From: Chytridium lagenaria
Taxonomy: Eukaryota > Chytridiomycota > Chytridiomycetes > Chytridiales > Chytridiaceae
DNA: 64,000 nucleotides
Reading direction: 5' to 3'
Assembly: GCA_025449115.1 (NCBI GenBank)
Contig: JAHLKC010000092.1
Coordinates: 103,112-167,111 of the forward strand
In this document: positions 3-28,468 of the stretch, one piece after another
Numbering within the stretch: the first letter of the stretch is position 1
Layout: every line of letters begins with the position of its first letter
Position numbers and translations under genes: made by a program
Notes under the pieces: model-generated
What the model was told of the DNA's origin: nothing
Databases searched by the model: none
Seen by the model: only the letters and a program-made list of their open reading frames with translations

Positions 3-3000
3 GATGCGTTCAGAAACCGGTTGAGAATGTTCCCTTCACTCGTGAATTGCTGTACTATTGATTGGTTCCAAGTGTGGCCTGAGGACGCTCTAGAAATTGT
101 TGCTAAAAAGTTTTTGGAAGATGTAGAGCTAACCCCTGACGTTCGCACAAATGTGGTCAATTGTGCAAAGAATTCCATACAGGGAGTCGGCTGCTTTCAG
201 AAAAATTCTATGAGGGGTTGCGAAGGCACAACTACGTCCACTCCGACGAGCTATCTTGAGCTTATTCAGACTTATAAATCTCTGTTGGAAATTAAACGTA
301 AAGAAGTCAATGCTTTGAAATCTCGTTACGAAGTTGGTTTGGAGCAGCTTGCATCTGCAGCCTCGCAAGTTGGTGCTATGCAGGAGGAGCTCCATGCTCT
401 CCAGCCTCAGCTTATTCAGACTCAGAAGGAGACGGATGAAATTATGGAAGTGATAGCAAGAGAATCTATTGATGTCGAGAAAAAGCGAGCCCTTGTTAAG
501 GTTGACGAGGCTGTCGCCAACAAAAGGCATCAGAAGCCAAGGCGATCAAAGATGAATGTGAGGCAGATTTGGCGGAGGCTATTCCGGCTCTTGAAAGTGC
601 CTTAGAAGCCCTCGACACACTTAAGCCTGCTGATATCACCGTCGTCAAATCTATGAAGAATCCGCCAGGCGCCGTAAAACTTGTTATGGAAGCGATTTGC
701 ATTATGAAAGGGATAAAGCCGGCTCGTATTAAAGATCCGGGAGGTTCCGGAAAGATGGTGGAGGATTACTGGGGCCCCGGCTCAAAAAATGCTTAGCGAC
801 TCTCACTTTCTACAATCACTTAAATCTTACGATAAGGACAATATTGACCCCAAGATCATTGAAAAAATTAGGAAACAATATTGTACAAACCCAGATTTTG
901 ACCCGAATATTGTGAAGAACTCTTCTGGGGCCGCAGAGGGTTTGTGCAAATGGGTTCGAGCCTTGGACAAATATGATGTTGTTGCAAAGGTTGTCGCTCC
1001 TAAGAAGGAGTCTCTCGCGAAGGCTGAAGGCGAATTGGCCGTGGAAATGGCAAAGTTAAACTCTAAGCGAGCAGAACTGAAAGAAGTCGAGGACAAAATG
1101 GAAGCTTTAGAGTCTCAATTCCGTGCCATGACGGCTAAAAAGGCCGACCTTGAGCAGCAGGTTGACCTTTGTGGAAAGAAGCTCGTTAGGGCAGAGAAGC
1201 TTATCGGAGGCCTTGGAGGTGAAAAGTCTCGATGGAGTGATGCTGCTAAAACATTAACGGTCACATACAATAATTTGATCGGTGATGTGCTCCTTGCGTC
1301 AGCCGTTATTGCCTACCTTGGAGCGTTCACTTCTTCCTATCGACAAATGTGTGTGAATTCTTGGAATGAATCTTGCGTTGCGAAGAAATTCCATGTTCCG
1401 GGACCTTTTCTTTGGTCAACACCTTGGGTGACCCTATATCACTGCGAGCTTGGAATCTTGCAGGACTCCCGAACGATAGTTTTTCTAGCGATAACGGTAT
1501 CATCGCCACAAAGCAAGGAGATGGCCCCTCTTCATTGACCCACAAGGCCAAGCAAATAAGTGGGTAAAGAACATGGAGAAGCAGAACCGACTAGCCGTCA
1601 TAAAGCTCTCTGATTCTGATTACGTGAGGACTTTAGAGAACGCTATACAGTTTGGAACCCCTGTTCTCCTTGAGAACATTGGTGAAGAGGTCGACTCCGT
1701 TCTGGAGCCTCTACTCACTAAGCAGATATTTAAGCAAAGTGGTGTTATGTGCATTCGGCTTGGAGAAGCCATTATTGAATATTCTCCCGAGTTCAGGTTC
1801 TATATTACGACCAAACTGAGAAACCCTCATTATCTTCCCGAGTTGTCGACTAAAGTCACAATCGTAAACTTCATGATTACTCCTGAAGGACTTGAAGATC
1901 AACTTCTCGGGATTGTTGCGGCAAGAGAAAGGCCTGAGCTTGAAGAAGAAAAGAACAGATTGGTTTTGGCTTCAGCGAGCAATAAGAAACAGCTAAAAAG
2001 AGATTGAAGATAAGATTCTCCATATTTTGTCTAGCAGTCAAGGCAACCTGTTAGAAGATTCCACCGCTATTGATGCTCTCACTAGCTCTAAGGTGCTTGC
2101 AAATGATATCGCTCAAAAGCAGCAAATCGCTGAGGAAAACTGAGAAGCAAATCGATATTACACGTCAAGGATACAGGCCTATTGCTTTCCATTCGTCGAT
2201 ACTGTACTTCGTTATTGCGGATCTGGCAAATGTAAGCTCTTTAAAAATTTTTTAATTCCACCTCTACTTAACTTCCTCATAGATTGAGCCTATGTATCAA
2301 TATTCTCTGGGATGGTTCGTCAACTTGTTTTTGCAGTCGATTGCGGATTCGGAGAAATCGGATGTTCTGGCAACCAGAATAGAAAACCTGCGGAACCATT
2401 TTACGTACTCTTTATACTGTAACGTCTGCCGGTCACTTTTCAAGAAAGACAAACTCTTGTTTCTTTTCTTCTCTGTATTGGCTTAATGCGCGGGCGAAAT
2501 GAAGTCGATCTGGACGAATGGATGTTCTTGTTAACCGGCGGTGTGGGAGTAGACCCAAACCTGCCCGCAAATCCTGCACCAGAGTGGCTTAGTGATAAAG
2601 CTTGGGGCGAAATTAACAGATTATCGAATCTTTCGGCTTTCGCGAGCTTTGGCAACTCTTTTAAAGCCGCCCCTTTGCTTTGGAAGGATATTTCCGATTC
2701 CCCTGAACCACATAAAGAGCCTATTCCTGAAGAGTGGGATCAGAGAATGTCAGCATTCCAAAGAATCATCATCATTCGTATGTTGAGACCTGATAAGCTT
2801 GTGCCTGCTGTGATGGAGTTCGTCAAAGGCAAGATGGGACTCAAGTACATTGAGCCTCCGCAATTTGACCTGGCTGGGCCCTTTGCCGATTCGAATAATT
2901 GTGCGCCTCTGATCTTCATCCTATCTCCTGGAGTTGACCCTATGGCAAGGTAGAGTTTTTGTAATTATTTTTCTGCATTTCTTGTATGCTAAATCTTACT

Positions 3001-10606: not shown

Positions 10607-11743
10607 GTTCAAGGTTGAAGCCCTGTTCACCTCAAACAGAAATCTAATCTTTTTTTTTCAAAAAACACCCGCGACTTGACTTGGTTCGACACGCGTAAAG
10701 GAACAATGGGACTCAGGGATTCTTAGTAACAACCGTTAGGTCAGGGATTATCAGTAACGACCGTGAGAGATTGAAGATGAGCGGAGTTGTAGACTTGAAG
10801 GCTCTGACGATGCCTCTGTGGTGAGGGTTCGCTTTTATGTTGTGGAGTTTGGGATAATGGGGAAGCGACCATGGATTTTTTTGCCATTTTTCACTTCAGA
10901 ATTTGCTGACTGTTCAGGGTTGGGTGATTCAGACAGCATCACTAAATAAAGCTCGGGAAAGAGATACATTGACTACTGGTGTGTTGATGATGTCGATGAA
11001 TGTTAAGGGAAATAGGTTGTGATTGTGGTTGTGGTTGTGGGGGATGTGGTGATGGTGGGTATCGGCTAGTATCACCCATGCAATGAAGACTCGCGGTATG
11101 TTTGCGTAATCCTCTTCACGGATGCTTACGCTATAGAATCACCATAGCGGGATTAGTTTTCTACGGGAATCATAACCATTGTTTTAAAGAGATCGTCCAG
11201 AAGGGAAAAAAAAAAAGACAGAGGAGTGTCTTTATGCCTAAGCAGCTAGCTGGAGAAACTGTATGGGTTGATTTTAATCGTCCATCGCTGTCGTCTTGAT
11301 ACTTGCTTTTAAACAAGTGCTTTCAGATGAACGTGCTCCCACTTTATTTGTTGACCATCTGTTTCCATCGGCCGTACCTAGTAATATACCACTTTCTTGG
11401 ACTACATATATACCCCCACCACCAATTTTCATCCTACAGTTTAGCATACGAACGCGCAATCATGTGGAAAGTAGATACGCATTGCAGCACGTCGATCGGC
11501 TCTTTTTTTTTTTTTTTTTTTTGCGCAACTATATCTCCAATTTCCAGTACCATCACTTTCTAATTACTTCACATCCGCACCCGACCCTGCTTTCATGCTT
11601 ATTCTGAATTTCTTATGTTATGTAAATCGAAAATGAAAGCATTATTAACTTATCGCACGAAAAAATAGACTGCGTATGTGGAAAGTAGAGGCTCAAAAAG
11701 AGGAAAAAGCTTTAACGTCATCGTTAACGGATGTTCCACCGTC
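10607..11743. other. Intergenic: adenylosuccinate synthetase upstream region
   Basis: The region holds GTGGTTGT-type simple sequence near 11020-11060 and a T run at about 11501-11521. No gene is supported. Short open frames here have no recognisable content. Confidence 0.6.
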
Positions 11744-11835
11744 AGGACAACCATTGACGGAAGAGACTACGCCTACTGAAAGGTTTTGTTGGAAAAATCT
11801 TTGACCTACGTAACAACGCCTTGCTTACCAACATT
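11744..11835 (-). pseudogene. Decayed 3' tail of a secreted S1-type gene
   Basis: Read on the minus strand, this segment matches the last ~95 nt of the S1 gene (12132-12227), with shared blocks such as GGTAAGCAAGG, GTTGTT, GTAGTCTCTTCCGTC and GGTTGTC. S1 codes there for AGKQGVVAQVKGLLQQALSL followed by LTRRSLFRRWLS. The copy carries stop codons (one right after the VVT equivalent) and substitutions throughout. The similarity ends at both sides, so only a tail remains, about 390 bp beyond the S1 stop. It is a remnant of an extra array member or of a local duplication. Confidence 0.7.
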
Positions 11836-12125
11836 CGCCGCTTTTTCATAAGCTGTAGCCCAGCAATTACGGCATACAAGCTTTGGAACTTAAACTCTTT
11901 TTCAAACATTTTGAAAAATGTAATATGTATGATGCAAAATGCAGAAAGTGCTCTTTATAGACATGCGGGTGTACAGGAATTCAGTGAGTGTATGTATGAA
12001 AAGAACCGACTTGAAACACAACGGAAAATAATGCATAGAAAGATTGAGGGAATGTTCAACGAGAGGGAACATTTCCGTCAATTCTCTAGATCGAAGGGCT
12101 TTCAGCGGAGGTGTCGTAATCACGT

Positions 12126-13459
12126 TCACGACAACCAACGACGGAAGAGGCTACGCCTAGTGAGAAGGGACAGCGCTTGCTGGAGAAGACCTTTCACCTG
12201 CGCAACAACACCTTGCTTACCAGCATCAGCAGCTCCTCCAGCAGCGGCATTTCCAGCAGCGGCAGCAGCATCAGCCGCATCAGCCGCCGCGATAATAGGG
12301 TCCACAGCTGCAGCCGCACCCGCGTTACCGGCACCCGTGTTACCAGAACTCGGGTTACCAGCACCCGCGTTGACTTGATTGTTGTTGTTGTTCTTGTTGT
12401 TGTTCAAAGCTGGAGGAGGGGGGGGTGCAGCCGCATTTCCAGCAACACCTTTCATCAAGTTCTGCGCAGCGTCAACAGCGGGTGCAAGGGCTTCACCACC
12501 ACTGGCTTCTTTGAGAAGGGTGATGGCTTGTTCAATGAGGGTTTTAGCTTGGGCGACACGTTGAGTGAGATCACCCGTGGCATCCACGACGGCAGGAGGA
12601 GCAGCCGCAGGGGGAGCAGCCGCAGGGGGGCAGCCGCGGGTGGAGCAGCAGCGGGAGGGGCGGCACCAGCACCTCCACCTTTCACGGCTCCAGCTTTAGG
12701 TGTGAAGTTCGCAATACCATCAAATCCAAAGCCCTAAAAGAAATAGAGAAGGTCAGCAGGAGAACCTTCAACGAAGTGAAAATAAGGAAGGAAACTTACG
12801 AAAACAAGATCAGCGACAGAGACGTCAGCGGCAGCTCCTGGACCCCTTCCAGCAGCTTTGGCGGCTGTAAGGATATCGGCACCAATTCGGTTGACGGTTT
12901 GAGCGCCTTGGACAAAATTTTGGTTGTTGCTTCCGGGAGCGGCAGTTCGAGGATCGACCTTAGGGACGATGCCCCTGAGGATGGGGTTGCTCGGGAAAGC
13001 AGGGTCCGTGCAAACTGATAATAATATAATTATGTTAGACGTACTTGGGCGGTAGATTCGAAGGTTTTGAAAAAACTCGCTACGTGATAAAGTAGGGGAA
13101 TGAGGAAACTTACTGGTATCCCTAGCATCCGCATTAACCGGGTTAAAGTTCCTCTCAGCTGCCACAAGATCCATTGCCGCATCAATGATCTTTTTGAACG
13201 CCGGTCCATCATTCTCACACTCCTTCTTGGCAGCCTCAATCAAATCATCGGCCATCTTGAGTTTAGCGCAAGGGCTCGCAGCAGCAAGCAGGAGTGAGAT
13301 CTCCTGCCCTCCAAAGCCCAGAGCATTGTCACCAGGCGATTTGCGACATCCCGAGGCTTGGACTTTTTGACCAAGTTGGACCAACTGCTCTTGTTGAAAA
13401 CGAGCGTCGACGGTGGATGCGAGGGTGGCGAAGGCGAAAAGCATGGGAAGTAGATGCAT
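12126..13459 (-). CDS. S1: secreted Ala/Pro/Asn-rich protein, four-cysteine N-domain, no C-terminal module
   Basis: I do not recognise the family. Residues 1-20 form a signal peptide (MHLLPMLFAFATLASTVDA), followed by an N-domain with SGCRKSPGDNALGFGGQEI, ASPCAKLKMADDL, KKECEND and, in exon 2, CTDPAFP: four conserved cysteines. Exon 2 ends near VSVADLVF. Exon 3 begins GFGFDGIANFTPKAGA, then runs of Ala-Ala-Pro-Pro, and ends with two copies of the amphipathic pattern AQ(A/V)KxLLxQA(I/L)xLL around an Asn/Gly/Ala linker. Exons are 13459-13114, 13014-12800 and 12733-12126; introns are 99 and 66 nt. One base is missing in the six-G run at 12625-12630. From just after the signal peptide into the Ala-Pro linker, introns included, it is almost identical to S4 (20850-22646). 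It lacks the C-terminal cysteine module of the other five members. Confidence 0.85.
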
Positions 13460-13576
13460 TTTGTTGGTATAGTGGTGTGTATGTATGCGAGGTTTTTTCT
13501 GTAGGAAGTGGGGTATTCCACGTTTGAGTGATATGAAATGAGAGTTATGAAGTGAATTAAGGTCAACTGTGTCCTC

Positions 13577-13584
13577 TTTTTATA
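13577..13584 (-). promoter_or_regulatory. TATA-like box of S1
   Basis: TATAAAAA on the minus strand, about 120 bp upstream of the S1 ATG. An equivalent box precedes every other member of the array, which supports a real core-promoter role. Confidence 0.6.
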
Positions 13585-13976
13585 CAACCTTGAACCTTTC
13601 AAGAAACGTCAAAGGCGCATGATGGGACCAGGTGGGGGGTTTGAGTGTTGTTTCAGGAATCTTTGTGTGCCGTTCAACACCTTTACCATTCTTGTCGAAT
13701 GCGCCGTCACGCACCAATCGCGCTCATCACCGTCATGGTGTCTTTTCTTGTCAAGGCGCGGCACGCCGCAAATCGCGTCAGTTATTGAGAATGTATGTCG
13801 TACAATCAGGAGGTACGTTGACAAGGTCCTCCTTTGTTTTAATGTTTCAAAGTTGGGGCAAACAAAAAGATGAAATGACCGTTTTTACGGCGTCATTTGG
13901 TTTTTTTTTTTTTTTTTTTTTTGGTAGTTGCTTTTTGTTTTATAAAAAAAAGCCTTCAAATTTACTTAAGTCTTTA

Positions 13977-14014
<38 letters not shown>

Positions 14015-14995
14015 CTTGTTTTAGAGGTTTCAAGAGCTGCCGTCAATTGATCCCGTGCTGTTGGTCGGCTTTTCGAATCCTTGTGTATATTTAAGAGTCA
14101 TATAAAGGGATAGAAACGTAAAGACACTTAAAAACGTGTTCTCTATTCAGTTCAGAGTGGGATTGGCTCAATAATTGTATCGACCTGCAGATAAATAATA
14201 ATGTGCAGGAATTTGCAGAGCAGAAAGCCAAATAAGAAGGATAACGAGATAGAGAAATGTCCTTTATTTAACGAAATAGAGAAAACTGTCAATATAAGTC
14301 AAAGTCATCAATATCCATTCCTACTTTCATCCTTTTCTGCCAACAGAACCAATCTTCACGGCATTCGAATCGTTTACATCATGCGAAGGCTGAGAAAGTT
14401 GTGAGCGGCATTTCTGTTACGATCCATAAAGTCATCAAAGTTTTGAACGAAAACATACAAAATAATGCATTGACAAAACTTCAGGATTAGGAGGATTGCA
14501 CTGGCGGAGTAGGTTGCTCGTTGACTGAATTGTGATTGCTCGATGAGAAGAAGAATAATGAGACTGCGAGGGATGTTGGCATTCACGAATGTGGACACAA
14601 GACACCAAAGGGATTGGATGACCAACTCACGCGCACTTTGTTTTGTTAAAAGTCATCTGCATAAAATTATGGCAAGAAATTGAAGAAAACCTAGAATTTA
14701 TAACAGGCTATCGAGGCTAACAATTGTGCGAACAAAATTATGCATATCAATGTATATGTATATATGGATAAAAGGGGTTAGGCTCCACGCTGAAACAACA
14801 AGACTGTTAGTTTGCACACTACCATAAAGGCGTCACTAAACACATTATGACCAACAATTTTCGATCGAACAGCTGATCAGGTCGAAGATGTCCAGGTGTG
14901 CAGGCGAAGTTAAGAAAGGTCAAATATGGGGATATCGGACGTAAGAGTCATGTTTTATTTCTTGTCTCTTTGACGAATACATAAAAGCAAAACAC
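13585..14995. other. Intergenic between S1 and S2 with long T tracts
   Basis: No gene is supported. Two long T homopolymers lie at about 13902-13922 and 13980-14012; on the minus strand they are A tracts. Homopolymers this long are sites of copy-number and sequencing error. Confidence 0.6.
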
Positions 14996-15327
14996 CTAGA
15001 GACCAACAGCAGCGTTAAACTGTTTAGCCGCTGCAATGTTCTGCGCGGCTTTAGCAGCATCAGCACCGGTGGAAAATCCGCGGGCACCAGAAGCGACGAG
15101 AGCAGCACCTGCAGCCTCACACTTGGCCCTGCATCCATCTCCCTTGACTAGGTTAGTGCAAAGCTGTCCAACGACGACACCAGGGTTAAGCGCAACCTGG
15201 TTGCCGTTAAACCCAAATCTGTTCTCGTTGCCTCTCGAGATGAACTCCATCTTAGGGCCAGTGCAGGTACCAGCGGCGCCGTTGTTGTTTCCCTGACCCT
15301 GGTTGTTGTTCTGGTTCCCTTGACTTC

Positions 15328-15374
<47 letters not shown>

Positions 15375-16996
15375 GCCTTGACCCTGTTGTCCACCGGCAC
15401 CAGCGAATTGTGCAGCAATGTTGCTCTGCTTACCAAGCGCAACGTTAAACCTATCAGCAGCCTCAGCAGCCGTCTGGACTGCGCAGCGTTAAATTGACCA
15501 GAGTAGCCACGAGCTCCATTCATGGCTCGTCCAGCTGCCTCACAGTTAGCCTTGCAGGCTCCAGCTTGGTTACAGATCTGCTGAACGACAACGGCAGAGT
15601 TCAACGCTACTTGCTGGCCTCCACGTCCAAATCGGTGTTCACTAGCACCAGGTTGCGAGATAAACTCCATGGCTTGGACGTTGGAGCAGTCCAAGCCGGC
15701 GGGAGCAGCTACAGCGCCGGCTCCACCGCCGGTTATAGCCGGGGGTGCGGGAGCGTTAGCGAATTGAGCAGCAAAGTTGGACGGATTTCCAAGAACAGCG
15801 TTGAAACGATCGGCGGCTTCAGCGTTAGCGCGGGACTGAGCAACGTTAAATTGACCAGAGTATCCACGAGCTCCGTTCATGGCGCGTCCGGCAGCGTCAC
15901 ACTGAGCCCTGCAGTTGCCAGAGTTGTTGCAAATCTGCTCAATTACGATCGCAGAGTTTAACGCGACTTGCTGGCCACCACGTCCAAAACGATGTTCTCT
16001 ACCACCAAGTTGCGAGATGAATTGCATCTGTTGGACGTTGGCACATTGCCCTCGACTCGCTTGGACTTGAGGAAGAGGGGATGGAGGGGGTGCGACAACA
16101 GCAGGTGGAGGGGAATGGGACGGTTCTGGCCGGCGTTGTTGTTGTTATTGTTGTTGTTGTTGTTATTTCCAGCACCAGTGCTGCCGTCACCACGAGCAGC
16201 ACCACCACGGGGTGTGAAAGCGCGATACCGTCAAAGCGTTGGCCTAATTGTAATTTTAAACAAAATTGATTAGGTAAGAAATTATATAAACATGATGCAT
16301 TCTAGATAACATTAAGGTCGAAAAAGATGCATAATACTTACAAAGAGAAGATCGGCCATGGAAAGAGCGTTACTGGCCCCTGGACCCGTACCGGCAGCCT
16401 TGGCGGCGTTCTGGATCTGTAAAGCCCTGGCATTCAAAGCTTGAGCACGAGCTGAAAGCGCCTGATCGTTGTTGGTTGTGCATTGGTACGAGGGTCAACT
16501 TTCTGTAAGATTCCCTTGAGCTCTGCTTGAGCGGGAAGACCCGGAGTGGTGCAGACCTGTTATAATGTAAAAGTATAATATTAGGTATAACAAAGTATAT
16601 AAGCATAATATGTATATAGATCTTGTACATGAGATGAGAAAATCATATCCAACTTACCGTGTCCAGGTTTCCGGCGAAAGGATTGAAGTTCCTCTCAGCT
16701 GCAACGAGATCAACGGCAGCGTCGATGGCTTGTTGGATAGCGTCAGTGTCGGCTCCACAGGAAGCTTTGGCGCGAACGATAAGGTCGTCTGCCATCTCGA
16801 GCTTTGCGCAAGGTGAGGCGCCGGCGAGGAGGAGGGCAATCTCTTGACCGCTAAATTGACGACCGAGGGCTTGGTCGTTGAGACAGGCGGGGCCGCTGAT
16901 TTACCGGCGAGGTCGACGGCGTTCTCTTGACCGAAGCGGGCGTCGACGGAGGTGAAGAGAAGAGCGGAGGCAATGGTATGATAGTGGTAACTTCAT
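14996..16996 (-). CDS. S2: secreted protein with three C-terminal four-cysteine modules
   Basis: Member of the unrecognised S family. The N-domain is of the second type (GPACL, FSGQEIALLLAGASPCAKLE, then VCTTPGLPAQ in exon 2) and nearly matches S5. After an Asn-rich and Pro-rich linker come three C-terminal modules: CANVQQMQFISQLGGREHRF, CSNVQAMEFISQPGASEHRF and CTGPKMEFISRGNENRFGF. Each repeats the pattern of one Cys, 20-30 residues, then Cys, a short spacer, Cys-x3-Cys (for example ICNQAGACKANC). Exons fit 16996-16658, 16556-16342 and 16243-14996. Several one-base indels break the frame compared with S4 and S5: in the signal peptide, in the AAAA before ISGP, in exon 2 near 16485, at the exon 3 start, and near 15478. 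The last throws a poly-Asn run into a Thr frame. Some indels may be real, so pseudogene status is possible. Confidence 0.82.
15326..15376. repeat. (GTT)n microsatellite inside S2 linker
   Basis: About 14 GTT units on the plus strand. In the expected reading frame they would code for Asn; in the present frame they read Thr because of a nearby base loss. S4 has only about five units at the same place, so the tract is length-variable between paralogues. Confidence 0.8.
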
Positions 16997-17173
16997 GGTT
17001 GCTGAATTTGTTGAGAGTGAGTTGTTGAAGTGCTTATGGTATAATCAGTATGAAATGTTGTATTCTGGTTTTGAGGGGTATAGCGATGATAGTCGCCGTA
17101 AGAGCTACTGGGTATGGAAACAATTGAGTATTGATGGTTGAAGATAGTGTTAAAGATGAGTGGACTTCACGCG

Positions 17174-17181
17174 TTTTTATA
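17174..17181 (-). promoter_or_regulatory. TATA-like box of S2
   Basis: TATAAAAA on the minus strand, about 180 bp upstream of the S2 ATG, with the same core as at the other S genes. Confidence 0.55.
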
Positions 17182-17308
17182 CGAGTTTCGTAGAGTTATG
17201 AGACGTGACCACATATTGTTGATGTCAACAAATAAGATTGAACCATGATGAACTGCCATAAACTTTAACGCTTACCGCAATCTCAAACAAATCAGCTACA
17301 TGCGCCCA

Positions 17309-17341
17309 GCAGTCTGATTGGTTATTTTCTGCATATTTCCG
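17309..17341 (-). promoter_or_regulatory. Conserved CCAAT-containing upstream element of S2
   Basis: This 33-bp block, read on the minus strand with an AACCAATCAGAC core, recurs almost unchanged upstream of S5 at 25951-25983. It lies about 310-340 bp from the ATG in both. Conservation in otherwise drifting promoter DNA could be function (a CCAAT-factor site) or recent duplication. Confidence 0.45.
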
Positions 17342-18030
17342 TACATATGGGGAAGTTTTTTGCAGTTCATTTTAGGCGGAACGAAACAAATGTCGACATC
17401 TCTTCGTTGGCCAGAGTAATACGCGGCCGCTCGTGGTAATGCGGCCTAACCTGCACAGCATGTCTCTGAAACAAATCTGCCGCTCTTTTAATCAGTGACG
17501 AATCTTGAGACTTACGTTAAGAGGAAATGAAAGCTTAGGATTGCTGCTATAAGCCATAATTGGCGTGTAAAATAATTTAAGAGTTACCTACTAATTTGTG
17601 ACGTTTTTTGTTGCTGAGCTAACTCTGGGGTCCGAACCGTGAGGGGGATATGCGGTTTGGTCCAGCTTGATATTTATCACAAGGAAAAAGGATTTGCTAA
17701 TGATCTTGTGTGTGAACAATTCACTTGAGAGAATTAAAGTCAGACGTTAAATGGGCATTACTGTTTTCCTTCAGCTAGTTTCTTGAGCCCAAACTCAAAG
17801 AGGATGTTAATGAAAGTTGATATGGCGAAAGAGTGCGCTCAACGATAAAGTGTCTTTAATACGGTGAATGACCATACCAAGATAAAAATGCTGTTGTATT
17901 GTTAACGAAACACGAAAAGATGCTTTTGATGTTTTACAATGCATGACGGAAACCAAATGCTCAGTCGATTATAACCCATTTTTGACTATTTACTTTGAAG
18001 TGCATTTATTATAACTTAAAGTTAAACATA

Positions 18031-18276
18031 GCTCTATGTTTAGGTTTTAGAGTGCTGCCGGTACTTGGATTGGCTAAAGAAATAATTTTGGTAGAACCAA
18101 CTCACATGCTCTTTTGCTCAGTAATTAAAGCGGAATAAGGACATGGTATAGAGCAAGGTTTAAGAATGTAAATCAGAATGATAGATGAAAGAGCAATATC
18201 CAATGTTTTATTTCACAATGCAGAGATATGGAGTAACGAGAAATGGTAAGGGATATGTGTATCGAAAAGGAAAAGA
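18031..18276. repeat. Intergenic duplicate (copy 1), downstream flank of S3
   Basis: The block beginning GCTCTATGTTTAGG, about 250 bp, recurs at 26293-26540 downstream of S6 with few differences. It extends into the 3' flank of the S3 and S6 genes. It is one of the markers showing that S1-S3 and S4-S6 arose by block duplication. Confidence 0.8.
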
Positions 18277-18475
18277 GTGCAAAAACGAACACCACATCCG
18301 ATCAAGAGACGAGAGGGTAAAAGAAAAAATCAAACAAACTTGAAACAGATATGTATTCAGAAAAAAACACACCGAAAAGATATAGAGTCTAAAAATCAGA
18401 AGCCTGGTGTGTGTTCTGACAGCGGTACGAACGATATGGAAAGAGAAAAAGGTAGGTAAAAGGGAAAATAGTTGT

Positions 18476-20159
18476 TTAAGCAAGGCCAGCATCAACGTTG
18501 AATTTGTTTGCCGCAGCGGTGTTCGCCTCAAACTTTGCCGCATCCTTTACATTCGTAAAGCCGCGCACCCCGAAGCAACTAGGGTAGCCCCAGCAGCCTC
18601 ACACTTGGCCTTGCATCCATCGCCCTTGACAAGGTTCGTGCAGATCTGTCCAACAACGACAGCAGGGTTCAAAGCCACCTGGTTACCATCAAATCCGAAT
18701 CTACTCTCAGACCCCTTTTCAATAAACTGCATCTTGGGACCAGTGCATTGCCCGCAGCTCCATCACTACCTGTAGTGACTCCGGCGAATTTTCCGGCAAC
18801 GTTGGTAGGGTTGCCAAGGGCTTTGTTGAAGGTATCAGCAGCTTGGGCGTTAAGAAGATCCCTGGCGGGGTCAGCCGCGTCACTAGTGAATCCCTTGACA
18901 CCTGTGGCGACAAGTGCGGCCCCAGCAGCATTGCAGATGTCCTTACATTGACCGTTGGCGCGATCACAGATCTGTTGGACGACAATGGCCGGGTTGAGAG
19001 CGACTTGGGTATTGTCAATGCCGAAACGGTGTTCCCGGCCTTGAACGACAAAATCCATCTTGCGGACGTCTGCGCATTGACCGGCGGCGGCGGCGGGTGC
19101 GGTGGCGGGAGGAGGAGTCGCAGGTGGAGGAGCGGCGTTTCCAGCATTATTGTTATTGTTGTTGTTGTTGGCGGGTGGGGGAGTCGCAGCGCCTTGACCG
19201 GAAAGGAGGGCAATGGCTTGTTGGAGAAGAGATTTGGCCTGTGCGATCTTGGCGGCTTTGTCGGCACCAGCGTTACCAGCGTTGCCTTGGTTCTGGTTCC
19301 CCTGGTTTTGGTTGCCCTGGTTCTGGTTACCTTGGTTCTGATTGCCTTGGTTGCCCTGAGCAACGCCGCCTCCGAGGACCGCACCCGCCTTAGGGGTAAA
19401 ATCTTTGACGCCGTCAAACCCGTTGGCCTGTGGGATAGAATGAGGAAAATGGTTTATTATTAGTTGCGCGCCATATAATAAGGAAGGGTTGAGGGGAAAA
19501 GAAAGGGTAAAAATTGAAAAGTAGAGAAAAAATATTAAAGGCTTTTCGTGTCCGATATCGCAAAATACAAAAGAACAACTTACAAAGACAAGATCAGCGA
19601 TAGAAACACCAGCAGGTGCACCCGGCCCCTTTCCAGCGGCCTTTGCTGCGGCGAGGATGGCAGTGGCTCTGGTGTTGAGAGCTTGAGCCCTGCCAGAAAG
19701 AGCTTGGTCGCCGTTGTTGGGGTCAGCTTGACGAGGGTCAACCTTGGGAATGATACCCCTCAAAACCTCGTTCACTGGGAGCGTAGCATCCGTGCAGATA
19801 GCGTCGAGATTCCCGTTAAAGGGGTTAAAGTTCTTTTCGGCTCCGAGGAGGTCCATGGCAGCCGCAACAACATTGGCAAAAGCAGGGGCATCGTTCTCAC
19901 ATTCCGTGCGAGCAGCAGCGAGCAGGTCATCGGCCATCTTGACCTTGTCACATGCACCGGCACCAGCGAGGAGTTTAGCGATTTCTTGACCACCAAAACC
20001 GAGGGCTTTGTCACCAGGGGATTTGCGACATCCTGAGGCCTCAACTTTTGGGCCGAGATTAGCTTCACGCTCTTGACCGAAACGCGCATTCACAGAGGAA
20101 GGAAGATTAAGGGAAAAGAGCAGGGTAGAGGCAACAGCGAGGATGGTGGAAAACTTCAT
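18476..20159 (-). CDS. S3: secreted protein with two C-terminal four-cysteine modules, one intron
   Basis: Member of the unrecognised S family. The signal peptide runs to about residue 24 (SSVNA). The N-domain is S1-like (SGCRKSPGDKALGFGGQEI). Exon 1 (20159-19584, 192 codons) reads straight through the place where all other members have intron 1 (FNPFNGNLDAICTDATLP). The single intron, 19428-19583, is 156 nt: a multiple of three with no stop in this frame. Exon 2 (19427-18476) has NQGNQ repeats, the helix KIAQAKSLLQQAIALL, a Pro/Ala linker, and modules CADVRKMDFVVQGREHRFGI and CTGPKMQFIEKGSESRFGF. Frame is lost by single bases near 18755 (a missing C before QCTGPK) and near 18565. The C-terminal half is nearly identical to S6. 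Confidence 0.83.
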
Positions 20160-20386
20160 TTTCGTTTAAAGGTTTATATGTATATGGATCAAAACGGAAA
20201 GAAGTGGATAAGATTAACGGGTGAAACCTCAGGGCAGAATGAAGTTGAATGACAATGGGTATGTGAGTATTCGAATGAGTAATTAACAATACGTGTCTAC
20301 CGCATATAACAAAAGTGCAGTTTAGTTTAGTTTCTCTTGTTGTTGAGGAGATGTGAAGGGCCGTTCAAGGGGAAAATGCAGCCAGC

Positions 20387-20394
20387 TTTTTATT
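20387..20394 (-). promoter_or_regulatory. TATA-like box of S3
   Basis: AATAAAAA on the minus strand, about 230 bp upstream of the S3 ATG. It is weaker and more distant than the boxes of the other members. Confidence 0.35.
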
Positions 20395-20849
20395 GATGTA
20401 TGAAAGAATAGGAAAAGGTGGGAGGTCAGAGGTGAGAGGTGGAGAAAAGACAAGAGGCTGGACCTTGTCAACCAACCGCACATGTAATACACACCGCAAT
20501 GCTCGTGTATTTACCGTTACGTAACCATTTTCTCTGTGTATTTCTATTACCTAATCAGGTGAATTGGCACCCCTTCAAGCACACACAAAGTATTAATTAC
20601 TAATAATAAATAATAATAAATAATAAATAATAAATACCTATATATGTACATGCAACGGAAAAATAAAAAGACGTCTGCATGTGGCGTGTGCGTGTGTGGT
20701 GAAATGTGATGAGTAAATTGAATGAAACGCTGAAAGAAAATAAATACTTATAAAAATGCAGTAGTAAAGTAAAAATGTATTTGCATAAAGAAACAAAAAT
20801 GTGTGCGAGAAAAATGCAAGAGAAAAACATGCAAAGTCTTTGTAATAAC

Positions 20850-22646
20850 TTAGACAAGACCAACAGCAGCGTTGAACTGGTTAGCCGCTGCAATGTTCTG
20901 CGCGGCTTTAGCAGCATCAGTACCGGTAGAAAATCCGCGGGCACCAGAAGCGACGAGAGCAGCACCTGCAGCCTCACACTTGGCCCTGCATCCATCTCCC
21001 TTGACTAGGTTAGTGCAAAGCTGTCCAACGACGACACCAGGGTTAAGCGCAACCTGATTGCCGTTAAACCCAAATCTGCTCTCGTTGCCTCTCGAGATGA
21101 ACTCCATCTTGGGACCAGTGCAGGTACCAGCGGCGCCGTTGTTGTTTCCCTGACCCTGGTTGTTGTTCTGGTTCCCTTGACCTTGGTTGTTGTTGTTGTT
21201 TTGACCTTGTTGTCCACCAGCAGCTGCACCAGCGAATTGTGCAGCAATGTTGCTCTGCTTACCAAGCGCAACATTAAACCTATCAGCAGCCTCAGCAGCC
21301 GTCCTGGACTGCGCAGCGTTAAATTGACCAGAGTAGCCACGAGCGCCATTCATGGCGCGTCCGGCTGCCTCACAGTCAGCCTTGCAGGCTCCAGCTTGGT
21401 TACAGATCTGCTCAACGACGATGGCAGAGTTCAACGCGACTTGCTGGCCTCCACGTCCGAAACGGTGTTCAGTACCACCAGGTTGTGAGATAAATTCCAT
21501 GGCTTGGACGTTGGCGCACGCAGAGTTAAGGTTAGCCGCAGGCGGGGCGGGTGGTGGAGGAGGGGGTGTAGCAGCGCCAGCGCCGGCACCAGCACCAGCA
21601 CCAGCGCCGGCACCAGCACCAGCACCAGCGCCGGCACCAGCACCAGCACCAGCGCCGGCACCAGCACCTTGGCCAGTCAAGAGAGTGATGGCCTGCTGGA
21701 GAAGAGACTTCGCTTGAGCAATCTTTGCTGCGTTACCAGTAGCGGCACCAGCTCCGGCGTTTTGAGCAGGAGGTGCAGCGGCAGAGGAGCAGCCGCAGGG
21801 GGAGCAGCCGCAGGGGGAGCAGCAGCGGGTGGAGCAGCAGCGGGAGGGGCGGCACCAGCACCTCCACCTTTCACGGCTCCAGCTTTAGGTGTGAAGTTCG
21901 CAATACCATCAAATCCAAAGCCCTAAAAGAAATAGACAAGGTCAGCAGGAGAACCTTCAACGAAGTGAAAATAAGGAAGGAAACTTACGAAAACAAGATC
22001 AGCGACAGAGACGTCAGCGGCAGCTCCTGGACCCCTTCCAGCAGCTTTGGCGGCTGTAAGGATATCGGCACCAATTCGGTTGACGGTTTGAGCGCCTTGG
22101 ACAAAATTCTGGTTGTTGCTTCCGGGAGCGCAGTTCGAGGATCGACCTTAGGGACGATGCCCCTGAGGATGGGGTTGCTCGGGAAAGCAGGGTCCGTGCA
22201 AACTGATAATAATATAATTATGTTAGACGTACTTGGGCGGTAGATTCGAAGGTTTTGAAAAAAACTCGCTACGTGATAAAGTAGGGGAATGAGGAAACTT
22301 ACTGGTACCCTAGCATCCGCATTAACCGGGTTAAAGTTCCTCTCAGCTGCTACAAGATCCATTGCCGCATCAATGATCTTTTTGAACGCCGGTCCATCAT
22401 TCTCACACTCCTTCTTGGCAGCCTCAATCAAATCATCGGCCATCTTGAGTTTAGCGCAAGGGCTCGCAGCAGCAAGCAGGAGTGAGATCTCCTGCCCTCC
22501 AAAGCCCAGAGCATTGTCACCAGGCGATTTGCGACATCCCGAGGCTTGGACTTTTGACCAAGTTGGACCAACTGCTCTTGTTGGAAACGAGCGTCGACGG
22601 TGGCGAAGAGGAGGGATGAGAGAGCGATAATGAAGGTGAATTTCAT
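20850..22646 (-). CDS. S4: secreted mosaic protein with two C-terminal four-cysteine modules
   Basis: Member of the unrecognised S family. Signal peptide MKFTFIIALSSLLFATVDA, then the S1-type N-domain. Exons are 22646-22303, 22202-21989 and 21922-20850. From just after the signal peptide to the Ala-Pro linker it matches S1 nearly base for base, introns included (intron 1 differs by one A in a run). From the linker on it matches S2 instead: CANVQAMEFISQPGGTEHRF, CNQAGACKADCEAAGR, then CTGPKMEFISRGNESRFGF. Between lie the helix KIAQAKSLLQQAITLL and a Gly-Ala repeat. One-base losses occur in the T run of LGQKVQA (near 22552), at 22130 and in the Ala-Pro linker near 21780. The gene is best explained as a recombinant of an S1-like front and an S2-like back. 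Confidence 0.85.
21575..21667. repeat. 24-bp minisatellite coding a Gly-Ala run in S4
   Basis: About four tandem copies of a 24-bp unit of the form GCGCCGGC followed by ACCAGCACCAGCACCA. On the minus strand they code for alternating Gly-Ala between the helix and the first C-module. It is absent from S1, S2, S3 and S6 at this position, so it expanded in this gene. Confidence 0.85.
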
Positions 22647-22786
22647 GGTTGCAGATGGATTTTTCTTGGATTTAAATTGGTATAGGCAGGTGAAGATGAG
22701 AATATATGCTTTGGTGAGGGTATGAAAATTGTTACAGTTAAATATGCTGATGGAGTATGAGTAGGTGATGGGGGAAATTGGGATGC

Positions 22787-22796
22787 TTTTATATAT
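22787..22796 (-). promoter_or_regulatory. TATA-like box of S4
   Basis: ATATATAAAA on the minus strand, about 145 bp upstream of the S4 ATG. Confidence 0.55.
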
Positions 22797-24052
22797 ATTT
22801 ATCTCGTCTATGCACACAAAGACTCAAGTTAATTGGATCCATCCGACGGAACACTTGCCGTCAAACGGACCGCAAAACATCGCGTGTCCAATGCGGTGCA
22901 TCGGAATTAAAGTTATCGACATGAAACGAGCCGTTAACAACTTCAAAGAACCAACCCCTTCGTGATGCACATGCGTTTCAATGACGGCCACGCTAAAGAA
23001 TTATAAACGCGTTGCTGACGAACGCGTAACTCAAAGTTTCGATCAACGTGATTGGTAGTTTTCTATAGAGTGTCTGTTGTTTACTTTTACTTCTTTCGGT
23101 CGGTTTTATGAAACAATTGGGGATGTATGGCGCCATGGGTTTGAGTGACGATGCCGTTGTATATGTTCTAAGCAAATTGTCTTCTAAGCAAAGCATTGTG
23201 TCGTCATGTAAATGTGTTTCCAGTATCTCGTTTTGACAAGAATACGTTAATTGTTTTAAACATTCCGATTTTGAAGTCCCCTCTCTTAAAATGTATTAAG
23301 CGCGCCATACGCATTTTTTATATTCTTCTATTTGGGGATGTTTAAATTTTTGTTTTTCAAACCTTGTGGCTACCTCGTTTAGATCACTTAGATCCAAAGA
23401 AAGTGTTTTTATTAACAAGCACTGAAATGCGTTGTGAGATTGGTTTGATAGGAGATAAACAAAATCGTCAAATGGTGAATTCCAGATAAAGGAAGGTTTT
23501 TGTTTCAATGGTAAATGGGAATACGACATTCATGCTTTCTAGGACGATTATTCCCAAAGAGATAATATTTCATTTCAATGCAACACTTGATTTGTTTGAA
23601 GGAAATAAACGAATGCGCTTAAAATGTGAGATTTGATGTATCGAATTCAATAATTAGTTCGTAAGGCAACATAATTTTTGAAACAATGTAATTATCAAGT
23701 AAAATTATGTGTTTATTACAGTCCTACTCTGTCCCGAGTGACTGTATCCAGTTGTAAGAAACGTAGATAATCAAGGTGAGGGTATTACTCGTTGATTACT
23801 TCGATTTTTGCATTGCATAAATGAAAAAATACTGATGAACAACACCTTTATTCTTTTTCCAGAATAATGTCGTAAAGACTTCAGTTAAGACGACGCCTCC
23901 TTTCATTTTCTGATAAGACACGTTTGGTCTCATTAAAATGGTAGCAATATTACCCGAGCTTGATCACAAATAAAAGCTTAAATCATAGATATTGTATAGC
24001 AACCACTTTTATTTTTTAAATCAAAGTAGGGGGTTATAGTTTGTTGTTTTTT
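22797..24052. other. Intergenic between S4 and S5
   Basis: About 1.25 kb holding the upstream DNA of S4 and the 3' flank of S5. Short open frames have no recognisable content. I see no RNA gene or transposon. Confidence 0.6.
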
Positions 24053-24818
24053 TTACGCAATTTCGTTCAAGAGGGCAACAGCTTGTTCGATCAGTGTCTT
24101 GGCTTGTTCGACAGCACCAGCGCCAGCAGCACCAGCAGCGCCAGCAGCGGCTACAGCGTCAGCAGCAGCTTGAGCCACTTCATCAACCCCTGCGTTCTGT
24201 TGGTTCACTTGACCGGCGTTGTTGTTGTTGTTGTTGTTGTTCCCTTGACCCTGGTTGCCCTGGTTGTTGTTGTTCTGGTTGTTGTTGTTCTGGTTGTTGT
24301 TGTTCTGGTTGTTACCGTCTTGCAAGGTGGCGGGAAGGGTTGTAGCAAAGTTAGTGGTGACGCCGAGAACCTTGTTAAAATCATCCGCAGACTTTCCAAG
24401 AGCAGCAAGCTCAGCAGCCGATGCGTCGCGCTTACTACGTCCCAAGTTGGCTTGAGCAGCAAAACAGTCGGCGGCAACAGTAGAAGGAGCTTTGCATTCG
24501 TTTTGAATACGGAGGCAGATAAAGTTCCCAACAATCTGAGTGTTAAGAGCGGATGGCTGATTCTTGAAAATACTGCCCTGAAGAGCACCACCATTGGGAC
24601 CGTTGGGTGCAGTTACGGCCCGAACTTCTCTAACATTACCGGGATCAGCTCCAAGACCCACAAAGATCTGTGCCTCTGCCGCATTACATGATCCAAGGTC
24701 GACGGCGCCTGCAGCTTGACCTTGATTCTGATTACCTTGGTTGTTGTTGTTGTTGTTGTTGTTCCCTTGACCCTGGTTACCCTGATTGTTCTGGTTGTTG
24801 TTCTGGTTGTTGTTCTGG

Positions 24819-24857
<39 letters not shown>

Positions 24858-25650
24858 CCGGCACCAGTGTTCGCGTCTCCCAAAACGGCTCCATTGCGTG
24901 ATGTGAAAGCAGCTATACCATCAAACCCATTCGCCTATAAAATGTCCCCCAATTAGAAATTTTATTGTGAAGACATAGCAATCAAAGTTGTACTTACAAA
25001 AAGAAGGTCCGCCATCGAAAGGTCGTTCGAGGCTCCAGGACCAGCGTTTGCCCCCTTGGCGGCGTTCTGGATCTGTAAAGCCCTGGCATTCAACGCTTGA
25101 GCACGAGCCGAAAGCGCCTGATCGTTGTTGTTGGGTGCTTCTGTACGAGGGTCAACTTTCTGTAAGATTCCCTTGAGCTCTGATTGAGCGGGAAGACCAG
25201 GAGTGGTGCAGACCTGTTAAAATGTGAAAGATAAATATTTGCCGGTATAACGAAGTATATAAGAATATCGCTATTGTACACGAGATAAGAAAAGCATATC
25301 CAACTTACCGTGTCCAGGTTTCCGACGAAAGGATTGAAGTTCCTCTCAGCAGCAACGAGATCAATGGCAGCGTCGATGGCTTGTTGGATAGCGTCAGTGT
25401 CGGCTCCACATGAAGCTTTGGCGCGAACGATAAGATCGTCTGCCATCTCGAGCTTTGCGCAAGGTGAGGCGCCGGCGAGGAGGAGGGCAATCTCTTGACC
25501 ACTAAATTGACGACCGAGGGCTTGATCGTTGAGACAGGCGGGGCCGCTGATTTTACCGGCGAGGTCGACGGCGTTCTCTTGACCGAAGCGGGCGTCAACG
25601 GAGGTGAAGAGAACAGCGGAGGCAATAGCGATGATAGTGGTGAACTTCAT
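24053..25650 (-). CDS. S5: secreted Asn-rich protein with a divergent C-terminal cysteine module (intact)
   Basis: The best-preserved member of the unrecognised S family. Exons 25650-25309 (114 codons), 25213-24998 (72) and 24934-24053 (294) give 479 residues with no correction. Residues 1-20 are a signal peptide (MKFTTIIAIASAVLFTSVDA). The N-domain cysteines are at about 39, 64, 81 and 116. The third exon starts ANGFDGIAAFTSRNGAV and continues with long Asn runs mixed with NQNNQ and QGQGN. A module differing from the other members follows (SCNAAEAQIFVGLGADPG, then FICLRIQNEC, then AADCFAAQ), again with four cysteines but a longer first spacing. A second Asn/Gln run leads to the terminal helix VEQAKTLIEQAVALLNEIA, the helix other members carry before their modules. 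The 5' half nearly matches S2. Confidence 0.9.
24742..24860. repeat. GTT-rich simple sequence coding Asn/Gln runs in S5
   Basis: Runs of GTT broken by CTG and CCT triplets; on the minus strand they code poly-Asn with interspersed Gln and Gly. A similar tract at 24214-24312 codes the second linker. These are coding simple repeats that can change length without frameshift. Confidence 0.8.
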
Positions 25651-25788
25651 AATTGCTGATTTGCTGATAATGAGATAAGAAGAGTATTGAAGAGTTTGAG
25701 TGTGATGGGTGGGTGTATGAATGCTTTGGTAGGGGTATGAAAGCTGTTGAGTTTTGTTAATGAGATTCGACAGTAGTGTCCAACAATC

Positions 25789-25796
25789 TTTTATAT
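25789..25796 (-). promoter_or_regulatory. TATA-like box of S5
   Basis: ATATAAAA on the minus strand, about 140 bp upstream of the S5 ATG. Confidence 0.55.
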
Positions 25797-25950
25797 GAGA
25801 AAGATTTAAGTTTGGGTTTTACGCCGAAAACAAACCCTGTAGCATGTTTGTTTCATGGTAAAGTTTCAAGCGGTCCATTAGCCGCATGTTTACATGAAAA
25901 CAGGGTTTGTGTACTTCTCGCGTTATAAAATTATGGGCTAAATACGCCAA

Positions 25951-25983
25951 GCAGTCTGATTGGTTGTTTTCTGTATATTTCCG
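25951..25983 (-). promoter_or_regulatory. Conserved CCAAT-containing upstream element of S5
   Basis: Second copy of the element upstream of S2 (17309-17341), differing at two bases, with the same orientation and a similar distance from the ATG. Confidence 0.45.
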
Positions 25984-26292
25984 AATTATGTTAGGTAAGG
26001 TTATACAATGAAGGAGTTTCGGACATTGGTGTTCGAATGGTCAAGGGTTCGAATTGTTCCAATTTCAGTTTTAGTGTCGAGTAACATTTAACGAGAAAAA
26101 AGTGCCGTCTTTGTCATTGGTTATGGGTAGATACAATTCTCATTTCACAATAGCGACAAGGAGCATCAACTCACAGATTTTCGGGGTATTCATAACAAAA
26201 TATGCAATCTTCTTGTTCCGTTACGGTATTTATCGCATCGCAGTTAGGGTCAACAATCCGAAGTGCAGTTATATATCTTAAAATAAAACATG

Positions 26293-26540
26293 GCTCTATG
26301 CTTAGTTTTCAAATTGCTGCCGGTACTTGGATTGGCTAAATAAATAATTTTGGTAGAACCAACTCACATGCTGTTTTGCTCAGTAATTATAGCGAATAAG
26401 AACATGGTATAGAGCAAGGTTCAAGAATGTAAATCAGAATGATAGATGAAAGAGCAATATCCAATGTTTTATTTCACAATGCAGAGATATGGAGTAACGA
26501 GAAATGGTAAGGGATATGTGTATCGAAAAGGAAAAGATTG
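26293..26540. repeat. Intergenic duplicate (copy 2), downstream flank of S6
   Basis: Near-identical to 18031-18276; see that entry. Together with the S2/S5 and S3/S6 similarities it marks the second block of the duplication. Confidence 0.8.
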
Positions 26541-26750
26541 CGAAAACGAACATACATCCCGAAAAAGGTTGAAAACCACGAGACGAGAAGGCAAAAGAAA
26601 AAAGCAAACAAACTTGAAAACAGATATATAAATCGAGAAATGAGCACCCACACACCAAAGGCATTAGAAATCAGAAGCTAGTGTGTGTTCTGACAGTGGT
26701 GCGAACCGAGGTGGAAAGAGAAAAAGATAGTTAAAAGGGAAAATAGGCGT

Positions 26751-28468
26751 TCAAGCAAGGCCAGCATCAATGTTGAATTTGTTGCCGCAGCGGTATTCGC
26801 CGCAAAAGCCGCCGCATCCTCTACATTCGAAAACCCACGCGCCCCCGAAGCAACTAGGGTAGCCCCAGCAGCCTCACACTTGGCCTTGCATCCATCGCCC
26901 TTAACAAGGTTCGTGCAGATCTGTCCAACAACAACACCAGGGTTCAAAGCCACCTGGTTACCATTGAACCCGAATCTACTCTCAGTACCCTTTTCAATAA
27001 ACTGCATCTTGGGACCAGTGCATTGAACCGCAGCTGCATCACTACCTGTAGTGGCTCCCGCGAACTTTCCAGCAACGTTGGTAGGGTTGCCAAGCGCTTT
27101 GTTGAAGGTATCAGCAGCTTGGGCATTAAGAAGATCCCTGGCGGGGTCAGCCACGTCACCAGAGAATCCCTTGACACCTGTGGCGACAAGTGTGGCTCCA
27201 GCAGCAATGCAGATGTCCTTACATTGACCGTTGGCGCGATCGCAGATTTGTTGGACGACAATGGCGGGGTTGAGAGCGACCTGGGTACCATCGATACCGA
27301 AACGGTGTTCCCGGCCATTAACGACAAAGTCCATCTTGCGGACGTCTGCGCATTGACCGGCGGCGGCGGCGGGTGCGGTGGCGGGAGGAGGAGTGGCAGG
27401 TGGGGGAGTGGCGTTTCCAGCATTCCCGGTATTTCCGGCGTTGTTCCCGGCGTTCCCAGCATTTCCAACGCTTCCAGCGTTGTTGTTGTTGTTGTTGTTG
27501 GCAAGCGAAGGAGCACCTTGGTCATTCAAGAGAGTAATGGCTTGCTGGAGGAGAGTCTTGGCTTGAGCAATCTTTGCGGCGTTACCGGCGGCACCAGCTA
27601 CAGCCCCAGCGTTATTTTGATTGTTGTTGTTTCCTTGGTTGTTGTTGTTCTGCTGACCATTTCCAGCTGCGGGTGGAGGAGGTGGAGGAGCCGCCGCACC
27701 TCCGGCCTTCGGCGTAAACTTGGCGATACCATCAAATCCAGTTCCCTATAAAAAAAAAAACGGAGTGAGTTTTCAACTACATGAATGAACCTCAGAAAGA
27801 GATAACTTACAAAGAGAACATCAGCCATGGAAAGGCCGTTACCAGCACCGGGACCCTTGTTGGCAGCCTTGGCGGCAGCAAGTACTTGCTCGCTCTTGGC
27901 ATTCGCGGCTTGAGCCTTAGCGTTCAACGCCTGATCGTTGTTGTTGGGGCCAGCAGTACGAGGATCGACCTTTTGTATAAGGCCCCTGAGCTCGGGCTGT
28001 GCGGGGAGATTCGGGTTGGTGCAAACCTGCAGTAAAAAAGCAGTATGTAAGAGTCCGAAGACACGAAGAGAAAGCTCGCAGGAGGAAAAAAAAGGCAAAA
28101 AACAAGTAAGTACTCACAGAATCAAGGTTTCCGTTGAACGGGTTAAAGTTTTTTTCAGCAACGACCAGATCCATAGCCGCTTTAATAGCCTGCTCAAGTC
28201 CCTTGGCATCATTCGCACAAGACTTTTTCGCACGAGCCACAAGGTCGTCAGCCATCTCAATCTTGGCGCAAGGATCAGCTGCAGCAAGGATAAGACTGAT
28301 TTCTTGTCCCTGGAACCCACGATCAAGGTTCTTAGGGTCTTGGCCTAAACAAGCGGGACCTTGGAGTTTCCCACCGAGTCCAACGGCGTTTTCTTGACCG
28401 AAACGAGCATCCACGGTGGTGGTGAAAAGAACGGCGGAGGCGAGAGCGATGATGGCGGTGAACTTCAT
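26751..28468 (-). CDS. S6: secreted protein with two C-terminal four-cysteine modules
   Basis: Member of the unrecognised S family. Signal peptide MKFTAIIALASAVLFTTTVDA; N-domain of the S2/S5 type (GPACLGQDPKNLDRGFQGQE, ADPCAKIEMADDL, KKSCAND, VCTNPNLPAQ). Exons are 28468-28118 (117 codons), 28026-27811 (72) and 27745-26751. Exon 3 has GTGFDGIAKFTPKAGG, a Pro and Asn/Gln linker, the helix KIAQAKTLLQQAITLL, a NAGNAGN linker, and modules CADVRKMDFVVNGREHRFGI and CTGPKMQFIEKGTESRFGF. Compared with S3 one A is missing in GCGGCAAACAAATTC near 26781. The literal frame therefore runs past the true stop (26751-26753) to 26678 and its last residues are spurious. Its back half matches S3 but its front half does not: an exchanged combination. 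Confidence 0.87.

What the first reader, a model, noticed from the sequence alone, without database searches (positions are those of the whole stretch)
12126..28468. Tandem array of six modular secreted proteins of an unrecognised family
Six minus-strand genes in 16 kb share a signal peptide, a four-Cys N-domain, an intron at the N-domain border, a GFDG(I/V)xxFT segment, Asn/Gln/Gly/Ala/Pro linkers and zero to three four-Cys C-modules (core HRFG-x3-QVALN, then IC-x5-8-C-x3-C). I can place it in no named family. Seen: architecture and tandem layout. Known: lineage-specific arrays of secreted Cys-module proteins often serve walls, spore coats or host contact. Inferred: an extracellular or wall role.
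Basis: partly seen in the sequence, partly recalled or inferred. Interest (0 to 1): 0.85.

Follow-up and report, generated by a model that had tools for sequence, protein, structure and literature searches.

The report
Unnamed fungal secreted cysteine-module family
A chytrid fungus carries a row of six genes for secreted proteins built from small cysteine-braced modules; relatives with the same layout occur in distant fungi under misleading names, and the proteins probably sit in or on the cell wall, though no function has been tested.

Summary
In detail: six related minus-strand genes lie at 12126-28468, in Chytridium lagenaria. Each has a signal-peptide-like start, a four-Cys N-domain and a low-complexity linker; they carry 0-3 four-Cys C-modules. 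dN/dS was 0.06-0.32 in 13 of 13 in-frame paralogue comparisons, so these are selected proteins, although only g5 reads through unbroken (probably assembly indels). At least four more genes lie elsewhere in the genome.

'Lineage-specific' is wrong. A profile search gave 492 proteins; of the 120 listed, the named ones are Ascomycota apart from one agaric and one 'Phytophthora' contig. UniRef calls some 'Circumsporozoite protein'. Chytrid and Dikarya N-domains match at hhalign 99.9%, C-modules at 97.7-98.4%. No scanned member had a significant Pfam match in either domain. The C-module models at pLDDT 95.2 with no PDB match at E<=0.001.

Best reading: secreted wall or matrix proteins whose C-modules bind a polysaccharide. 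Two chytrid proteins join C-modules to an Egh16-like domain, a family with one member reported as an LPMO-like copper oxidase (PMC12377627, passages). Binding is inferred, not shown.

The parts
12126..13459 (-). g1: leader, four-Cys N-domain, introns about 13015-13113 and 12734-12799, linker with two LLQQAI-like motifs, no C-module; one frame break in the linker
   Evidence: 98.7% identical to the g4 5' half over 829 columns
14996..16996 (-). g2: leader, N-domain, introns 16557-16657 and 16244-16341, linker, three C-modules (15788-16045, about 15420-15688, 15002-15265); several frame breaks
   Evidence: homologous genes on contigs C80 and C232
18476..20159 (-). g3: leader, N-domain without the border intron, one intron 19428-19583, linker, C-modules 18813-19076 and about 18482-18747; frame breaks in the second C-module region
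   Evidence: public protein P0002
20850..22646 (-). g4: mosaic gene, 5' half of g1 type and 3' half of g2/C80/C232 type; C-modules 21261-21518 and 20859-21122; frame breaks in the 5' half
24053..25650 (-). g5: the one unbroken gene; introns 25214-25308 and 24935-24997; one SALN-type C-module 24362-24688; C-terminal helix motif about 24056-24115
26751..28468 (-). g6: leader, N-domain, introns 28027-28117 and 27746-27810, linker with helix motif about 27521-27586, C-modules 27089-27352 and about 26760-27022; frame break near the C-terminus
   Evidence: public protein P0001; structure models
11742..11842 (-). Decayed copy of the 3' end of g1, just downstream of g1
   Evidence: local alignment score 87 against a maximum of 23 in 200 shuffles

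Best explanation
The array encodes secreted, non-enzymatic proteins of the fungal surface. Shown: a hydrophobic leader, followed in most members by a conserved RF(G/A/Q)(Q/E) start; an N-domain predicted as helical; an unstructured Asn/Gln/Gly/Ala/Pro linker; 0-3 copies of a compact C-module (predicted three strands, then three helices) with four conserved Cys; purifying selection; and the same N-domain, linker, C-module layout in Ascomycota and one Agaricomycete. Inferred: the N-domain is held by disulfides C2-C4 in all and C1-C3 in most chytrid copies; the C-modules bind a polysaccharide of the fungal wall or matrix, such as chitin or glucan; repeating them on flexible linkers gives avidity, so the proteins coat or cross-link the wall; the chytrid LLQQAI-like helix may let them self-associate. 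Tandem duplication and exchange between copies (g4 is a mosaic) varies the number of C-modules.
For: Leader and repeated disulfide-type modules on low-complexity linkers (72-83% Asn/Gln/Gly/Ala/Pro in three linkers). RF-type start in 124 of 150 fetched proteins. C-module Cys conserved in 18 of 18 aligned sequences; model pLDDT 95.2. Layout shared with Dikarya. dN/dS 0.06-0.32 in 13 of 13 comparisons. Two chytrid proteins put C-modules after an Egh16-like domain: P0016 (E 7.3e-9) and P0039 (E 2.9e-13); an Egh16-like protein of a nematode-trapping fungus has a modelled LPMO-like fold and copper-dependent oxidase activity (PMC12377627, abstract and passages). Module-plus-enzyme layout is typical of carbohydrate-binding modules (general knowledge).
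Against: No binding, localisation or expression data. Only two fusions, in two chytrid genera, and their Egh16-like domains keep just the N-terminal His, so a two-His copper brace is not complete there. Egh16 proteins are also known as virulence factors, so the fusion fits an effector role too. No C-module resembles a known carbohydrate-binding fold in these searches.
Confidence: 0.5

Rival explanations
1. They are host-contact effectors: secreted proteins that act on the organism the fungus lives on, with the C-modules as docking units.
For: Secreted, cysteine-rich and tandemly duplicated. The Egh16-like fusion partner belongs to a family described as virulence factors (listing; PMC12377627 passages). 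A circumsporozoite-like Fusarium graminearum protein is discussed as possibly aiding infection (PMC3320895, passage), though its membership here was not tested.
Against: dN/dS 0.06-0.32 in 13 of 13 comparisons shows constraint, not diversification. The family occurs in many Xylariales and other fungi by name, which is wider than one host relation.
Confidence: 0.2
2. They are self-assembling coat or matrix proteins (zoospore cyst, spore or thallus surface) in which the C-module binds other proteins, not glycan.
For: Repeats on flexible linkers and the recurring LLQQAI-like helix, found by pattern in 11 of 43 tabulated proteins, all 11 from named chytrid-type fungi.
Against: No known coat family matches; the helix motif was not found by that pattern in the Dikarya members tabulated, although these have the rest of the layout. 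The fusion to an Egh16-like domain points more to glycan.
Confidence: 0.2
3. The array is largely decaying: mostly broken duplicates of little present function.
For: Five of six genes carry frame breaks, and a decayed 3' copy lies at 11742-11842.
Against: dN/dS well below 1 also between recent copies. In the g1/g4 BLAST alignment gap openings (6) outnumber mismatches (5) over 829 columns, as expected of read or assembly error.
Confidence: 0.1

Closest known systems
Unnamed Ascomycota proteins, some called 'Circumsporozoite protein' in UniRef
   Same: Same N-domain and C-module by profile and the same order along the protein
   Different: By pattern two N-domain Cys instead of four (129 of 129), mostly one C-module of the EALN type, no LLQQAI-like motif found by pattern. 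They are uncharacterised in the papers found here.
Egh16-like virulence factors (PF11327; TrsA of Arthrobotrys flagrans)
   Same: Secreted; an Egh16-like domain is fused to C-modules in P0016 and P0039
   Different: The array proteins have no PF11327 match; the shared part is the C-module, not the Egh16 domain
Carbohydrate-binding modules of fungal enzymes
   Same: Works like one, if the reading is right: a small module, repeated, on flexible linkers, twice beside an LPMO-related domain
   Different: No Pfam match, no PDB fold match at E<=0.001, no binding shown
Malarial circumsporozoite protein
   Same: Only the borrowed database name and a repeat-rich, low-complexity look
   Different: No thrombospondin-type or other significant Pfam match in 18 of 18 members scanned

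Membership tests
Egh16-like (PF11327) | Match to PF11327 in the array proteins | tested here: not met
   None of 8 window pieces matched it at E<=1; the fused domains of P0016 and P0039 do match
LPMO / Egh16-type copper oxidase (for the fusion proteins P0016, P0039) | Two His for a copper brace within the domain | tested here: not met
   Only one His, at the start of the mature domain, in the stretch examined: residue 21 of P0016 and 25 of P0039
Carbohydrate-binding module | Measured binding to a carbohydrate | not testable with these tools
   Inferred from two domain fusions only
Carbohydrate-binding module | Fold of a known carbohydrate-binding module | tested here: inconclusive
Hydrophobin, CFEM or other named fungal surface family | Match to that family's Pfam model | tested here: not met
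   No such family among matches at E<=1 in 8 window pieces or at E<=0.1 in 18 of 18 homologues
Circumsporozoite protein | Thrombospondin-type repeat domain | tested here: not met
   Not among matches at E<=0.1 in 18 of 18 members
The fungal family proposed here | N-domain and C-module homologous between chytrids and Dikarya | tested here: met
   hhalign 99.9% for the N-domain, 97.7% and 98.4% for C-modules; N-domain against C-module as control 1.0%
The fungal family proposed here | Secretion and wall or matrix location | not testable with these tools
   Leader judged by eye; no predictor and no proteomics

The most novel reading that the evidence does not exclude
The C-module is an undescribed, old fungal carbohydrate-binding module with a fold not yet in the PDB, used alone and in repeats to decorate the fungal wall, and recruited in chytrids as a targeting unit for an Egh16/LPMO-like domain.
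Probability: 0.3. Interest if true: 0.75.

Novelty: new variant of a known kind. Interest (0 to 1): 0.5.

Why it matters
Two protein domains found in chytrids, in many Ascomycota and in at least one agaric had no Pfam match in any of our scans and carry at best a misleading database name, so their genes are easily passed over in secretome studies. If the C-module binds wall glycan, it would be a new marker and tool for fungal walls. The high-confidence model makes both structure and binding directly testable.

Tried and rejected

Rejected: 'lineage-specific family'; 'circumsporozoite protein' as more than a label; a fast-evolving effector. The DNA pattern was wrongly written (Arg codons), so its zero means nothing. 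In one search the g1 model used a wrong intron-1 acceptor; the one given here was read. The counts use rough patterns and miss, for example, g6's N-domain. Whether C. lagenaria itself has Egh16-like genes is unknown: the one request for it did not complete. Ten literature searches listed no paper that I recognised as describing this family; that says nothing beyond these searches. The Penicillium 'circumsporozoite protein' of PMC5051111 (passages) was not tested for membership.

Full report
What is there. The window lies in a 41.9-Mb assembly of 356 contigs. Two of the six proteins are in public databases as hypothetical proteins of Chytridium lagenaria (P0001 = g6, P0002 = g3). All six genes lie on the minus strand between 28468 and 12126. 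Each begins with a hydrophobic leader followed by ARF(G/Q)QE, then an N-domain with four Cys. Intron 1 at the N-domain border is in five of six genes and missing in g3; intron 2 is in all six, before the exon that opens with the GFDG segment. Then come linkers (72-83% Asn, Gln, Gly, Ala and Pro in the three measured) and 0, 3, 2, 2, 1 and 2 C-modules for g1 to g6.

Real genes, imperfect sequence. Only g5 splices into one open frame. In pairwise alignments 11 of 12 gaps between the g1 and g4 5' halves are not multiples of three (6 of the 12 in the divergent leader, 1 in an intron), 12 of 13 between g2 and g5 (an intron and one end gap included), 5 of 5 between the g3 and g6 3' parts, and 7 of 8 between the g2 and g4 3' halves (mostly in the low-complexity linker). 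Yet dN/dS (Nei-Gojobori, my own script) is 0.06-0.32 in all 13 in-frame comparisons tried, 4 of them at dS above 1.5 where the ratio is rough. I read the breaks as mostly assembly error; no unrelated gene was measured as a control. The array is dynamic: g4 is a mosaic, its 5' half 98.7% identical to g1 and its 3' half 91-96% identical to g2 and to copies on contigs C80 and C232. A decayed copy of the g1 3' end follows g1. In Phlyctochytrium bullatum, P0003 and P0038 have consecutive locus tags (HDU96_005339 and 005340) on contigs of equal length, which suggests a tandem pair there too.

How far it reaches. A search with g6 gave 35 proteins, the C-module half of P0016 gave 11 including itself, and a profile of 18 members gave 492, of which 120 were listed (7996 candidates were scored, so 492 is a floor). 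Among the 120, the named ones are Ascomycota by my reading of the names, apart from Flagelloscypha (an agaric; P0102) and a 'Phytophthora cactorum' entry on a 2645-base contig that looks like contamination; the rest are unnamed. Profile comparison ties the chytrid and Dikarya forms: N-domain 99.9%, E 2.2e-32; HRFG-type C-module 97.7%; SALN-type C-module 98.4%; N-domain against C-module, as control, 1.0%. These profiles were built from 5 to 10 sequences that I chose. The four C-module Cys are present in 18 of 18 aligned sequences, P0014 included.

What it may do. No named enzyme or surface family matches the N-domain or C-module. The best clue is that two chytrid proteins, P0016 of Dinochytrium and P0039 of Phlyctochytrium, carry an Egh16-like domain followed by C-modules. 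In PMC12377627 (abstract and passages) an Egh16-like protein of a nematode-trapping fungus has a modelled LPMO-like fold and copper-dependent oxidase activity; the authors discuss glycoprotein or chitin targets. In the two chytrid proteins only the N-terminal His is present, so the fused domain may bind without cutting. I therefore favour C-modules as glycan-binding units of wall or matrix proteins (0.5), with effector (0.2) and protein-binding coat (0.2) as rivals. Constraint rather than diversification and wide occurrence weigh against an arms-race effector; the virulence history of Egh16 proteins weighs for it.

What is in print. Ten searches of the open library listed no paper that I recognised as describing this family. 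Passages only were seen of: a circumsporozoite-like F. graminearum protein (PMC3320895), 'ribosomal protein s17' effector candidates in Sclerotinia (PMC4039746) and Raffaelea (PMC7441637), and a Penicillium 'circumsporozoite protein' (PMC5051111). That the name 'ribosomal protein s17' attaches to this family is my recollection; none of these was tested for membership.

Noticed in passing
P0014 (285 aa, metagenome contig of 3460 bases): Two HRFG-type C-modules behind a leader that looks like a bacterial lipoprotein signal; no relative in two scans of prokaryote genomes. Possible transfer between kingdoms, or a contig of mixed origin.
   Followed up: partly
L036 (contig C68), ORF 1468-2349 minus strand: Leader, LLQQAI-like helix (SLITQAISLLKE) and one divergent C-module, without N-domain: the parts are shuffled within this genome.
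   Followed up: partly
Nowakowskiella and Gaertneriomyces members (P0007, P0008, P0010, P0012): The mature start reads RRFG(Q/E)E, a dibasic pair before FG, as for a Kex2-type processing site, where most others read ARFGQE.
   Followed up: partly
60554-63284, minus strand: Frames that look like integrase and reverse transcriptase/RNase H parts of a copia-type retroelement (by eye); observed only.
   Followed up: no
39242-45467, minus strand: Ankyrin-repeat-like gene or genes; around 42400 two overlapping frames look like one broken acidic stretch, possibly another assembly indel (by eye).
   Followed up: no
P0036 (785 aa, Quaeritorhiza haematococci): Four near-identical SALN-type C-modules on long low-complexity linkers, with no N-domain recognised by pattern.
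   Followed up: no
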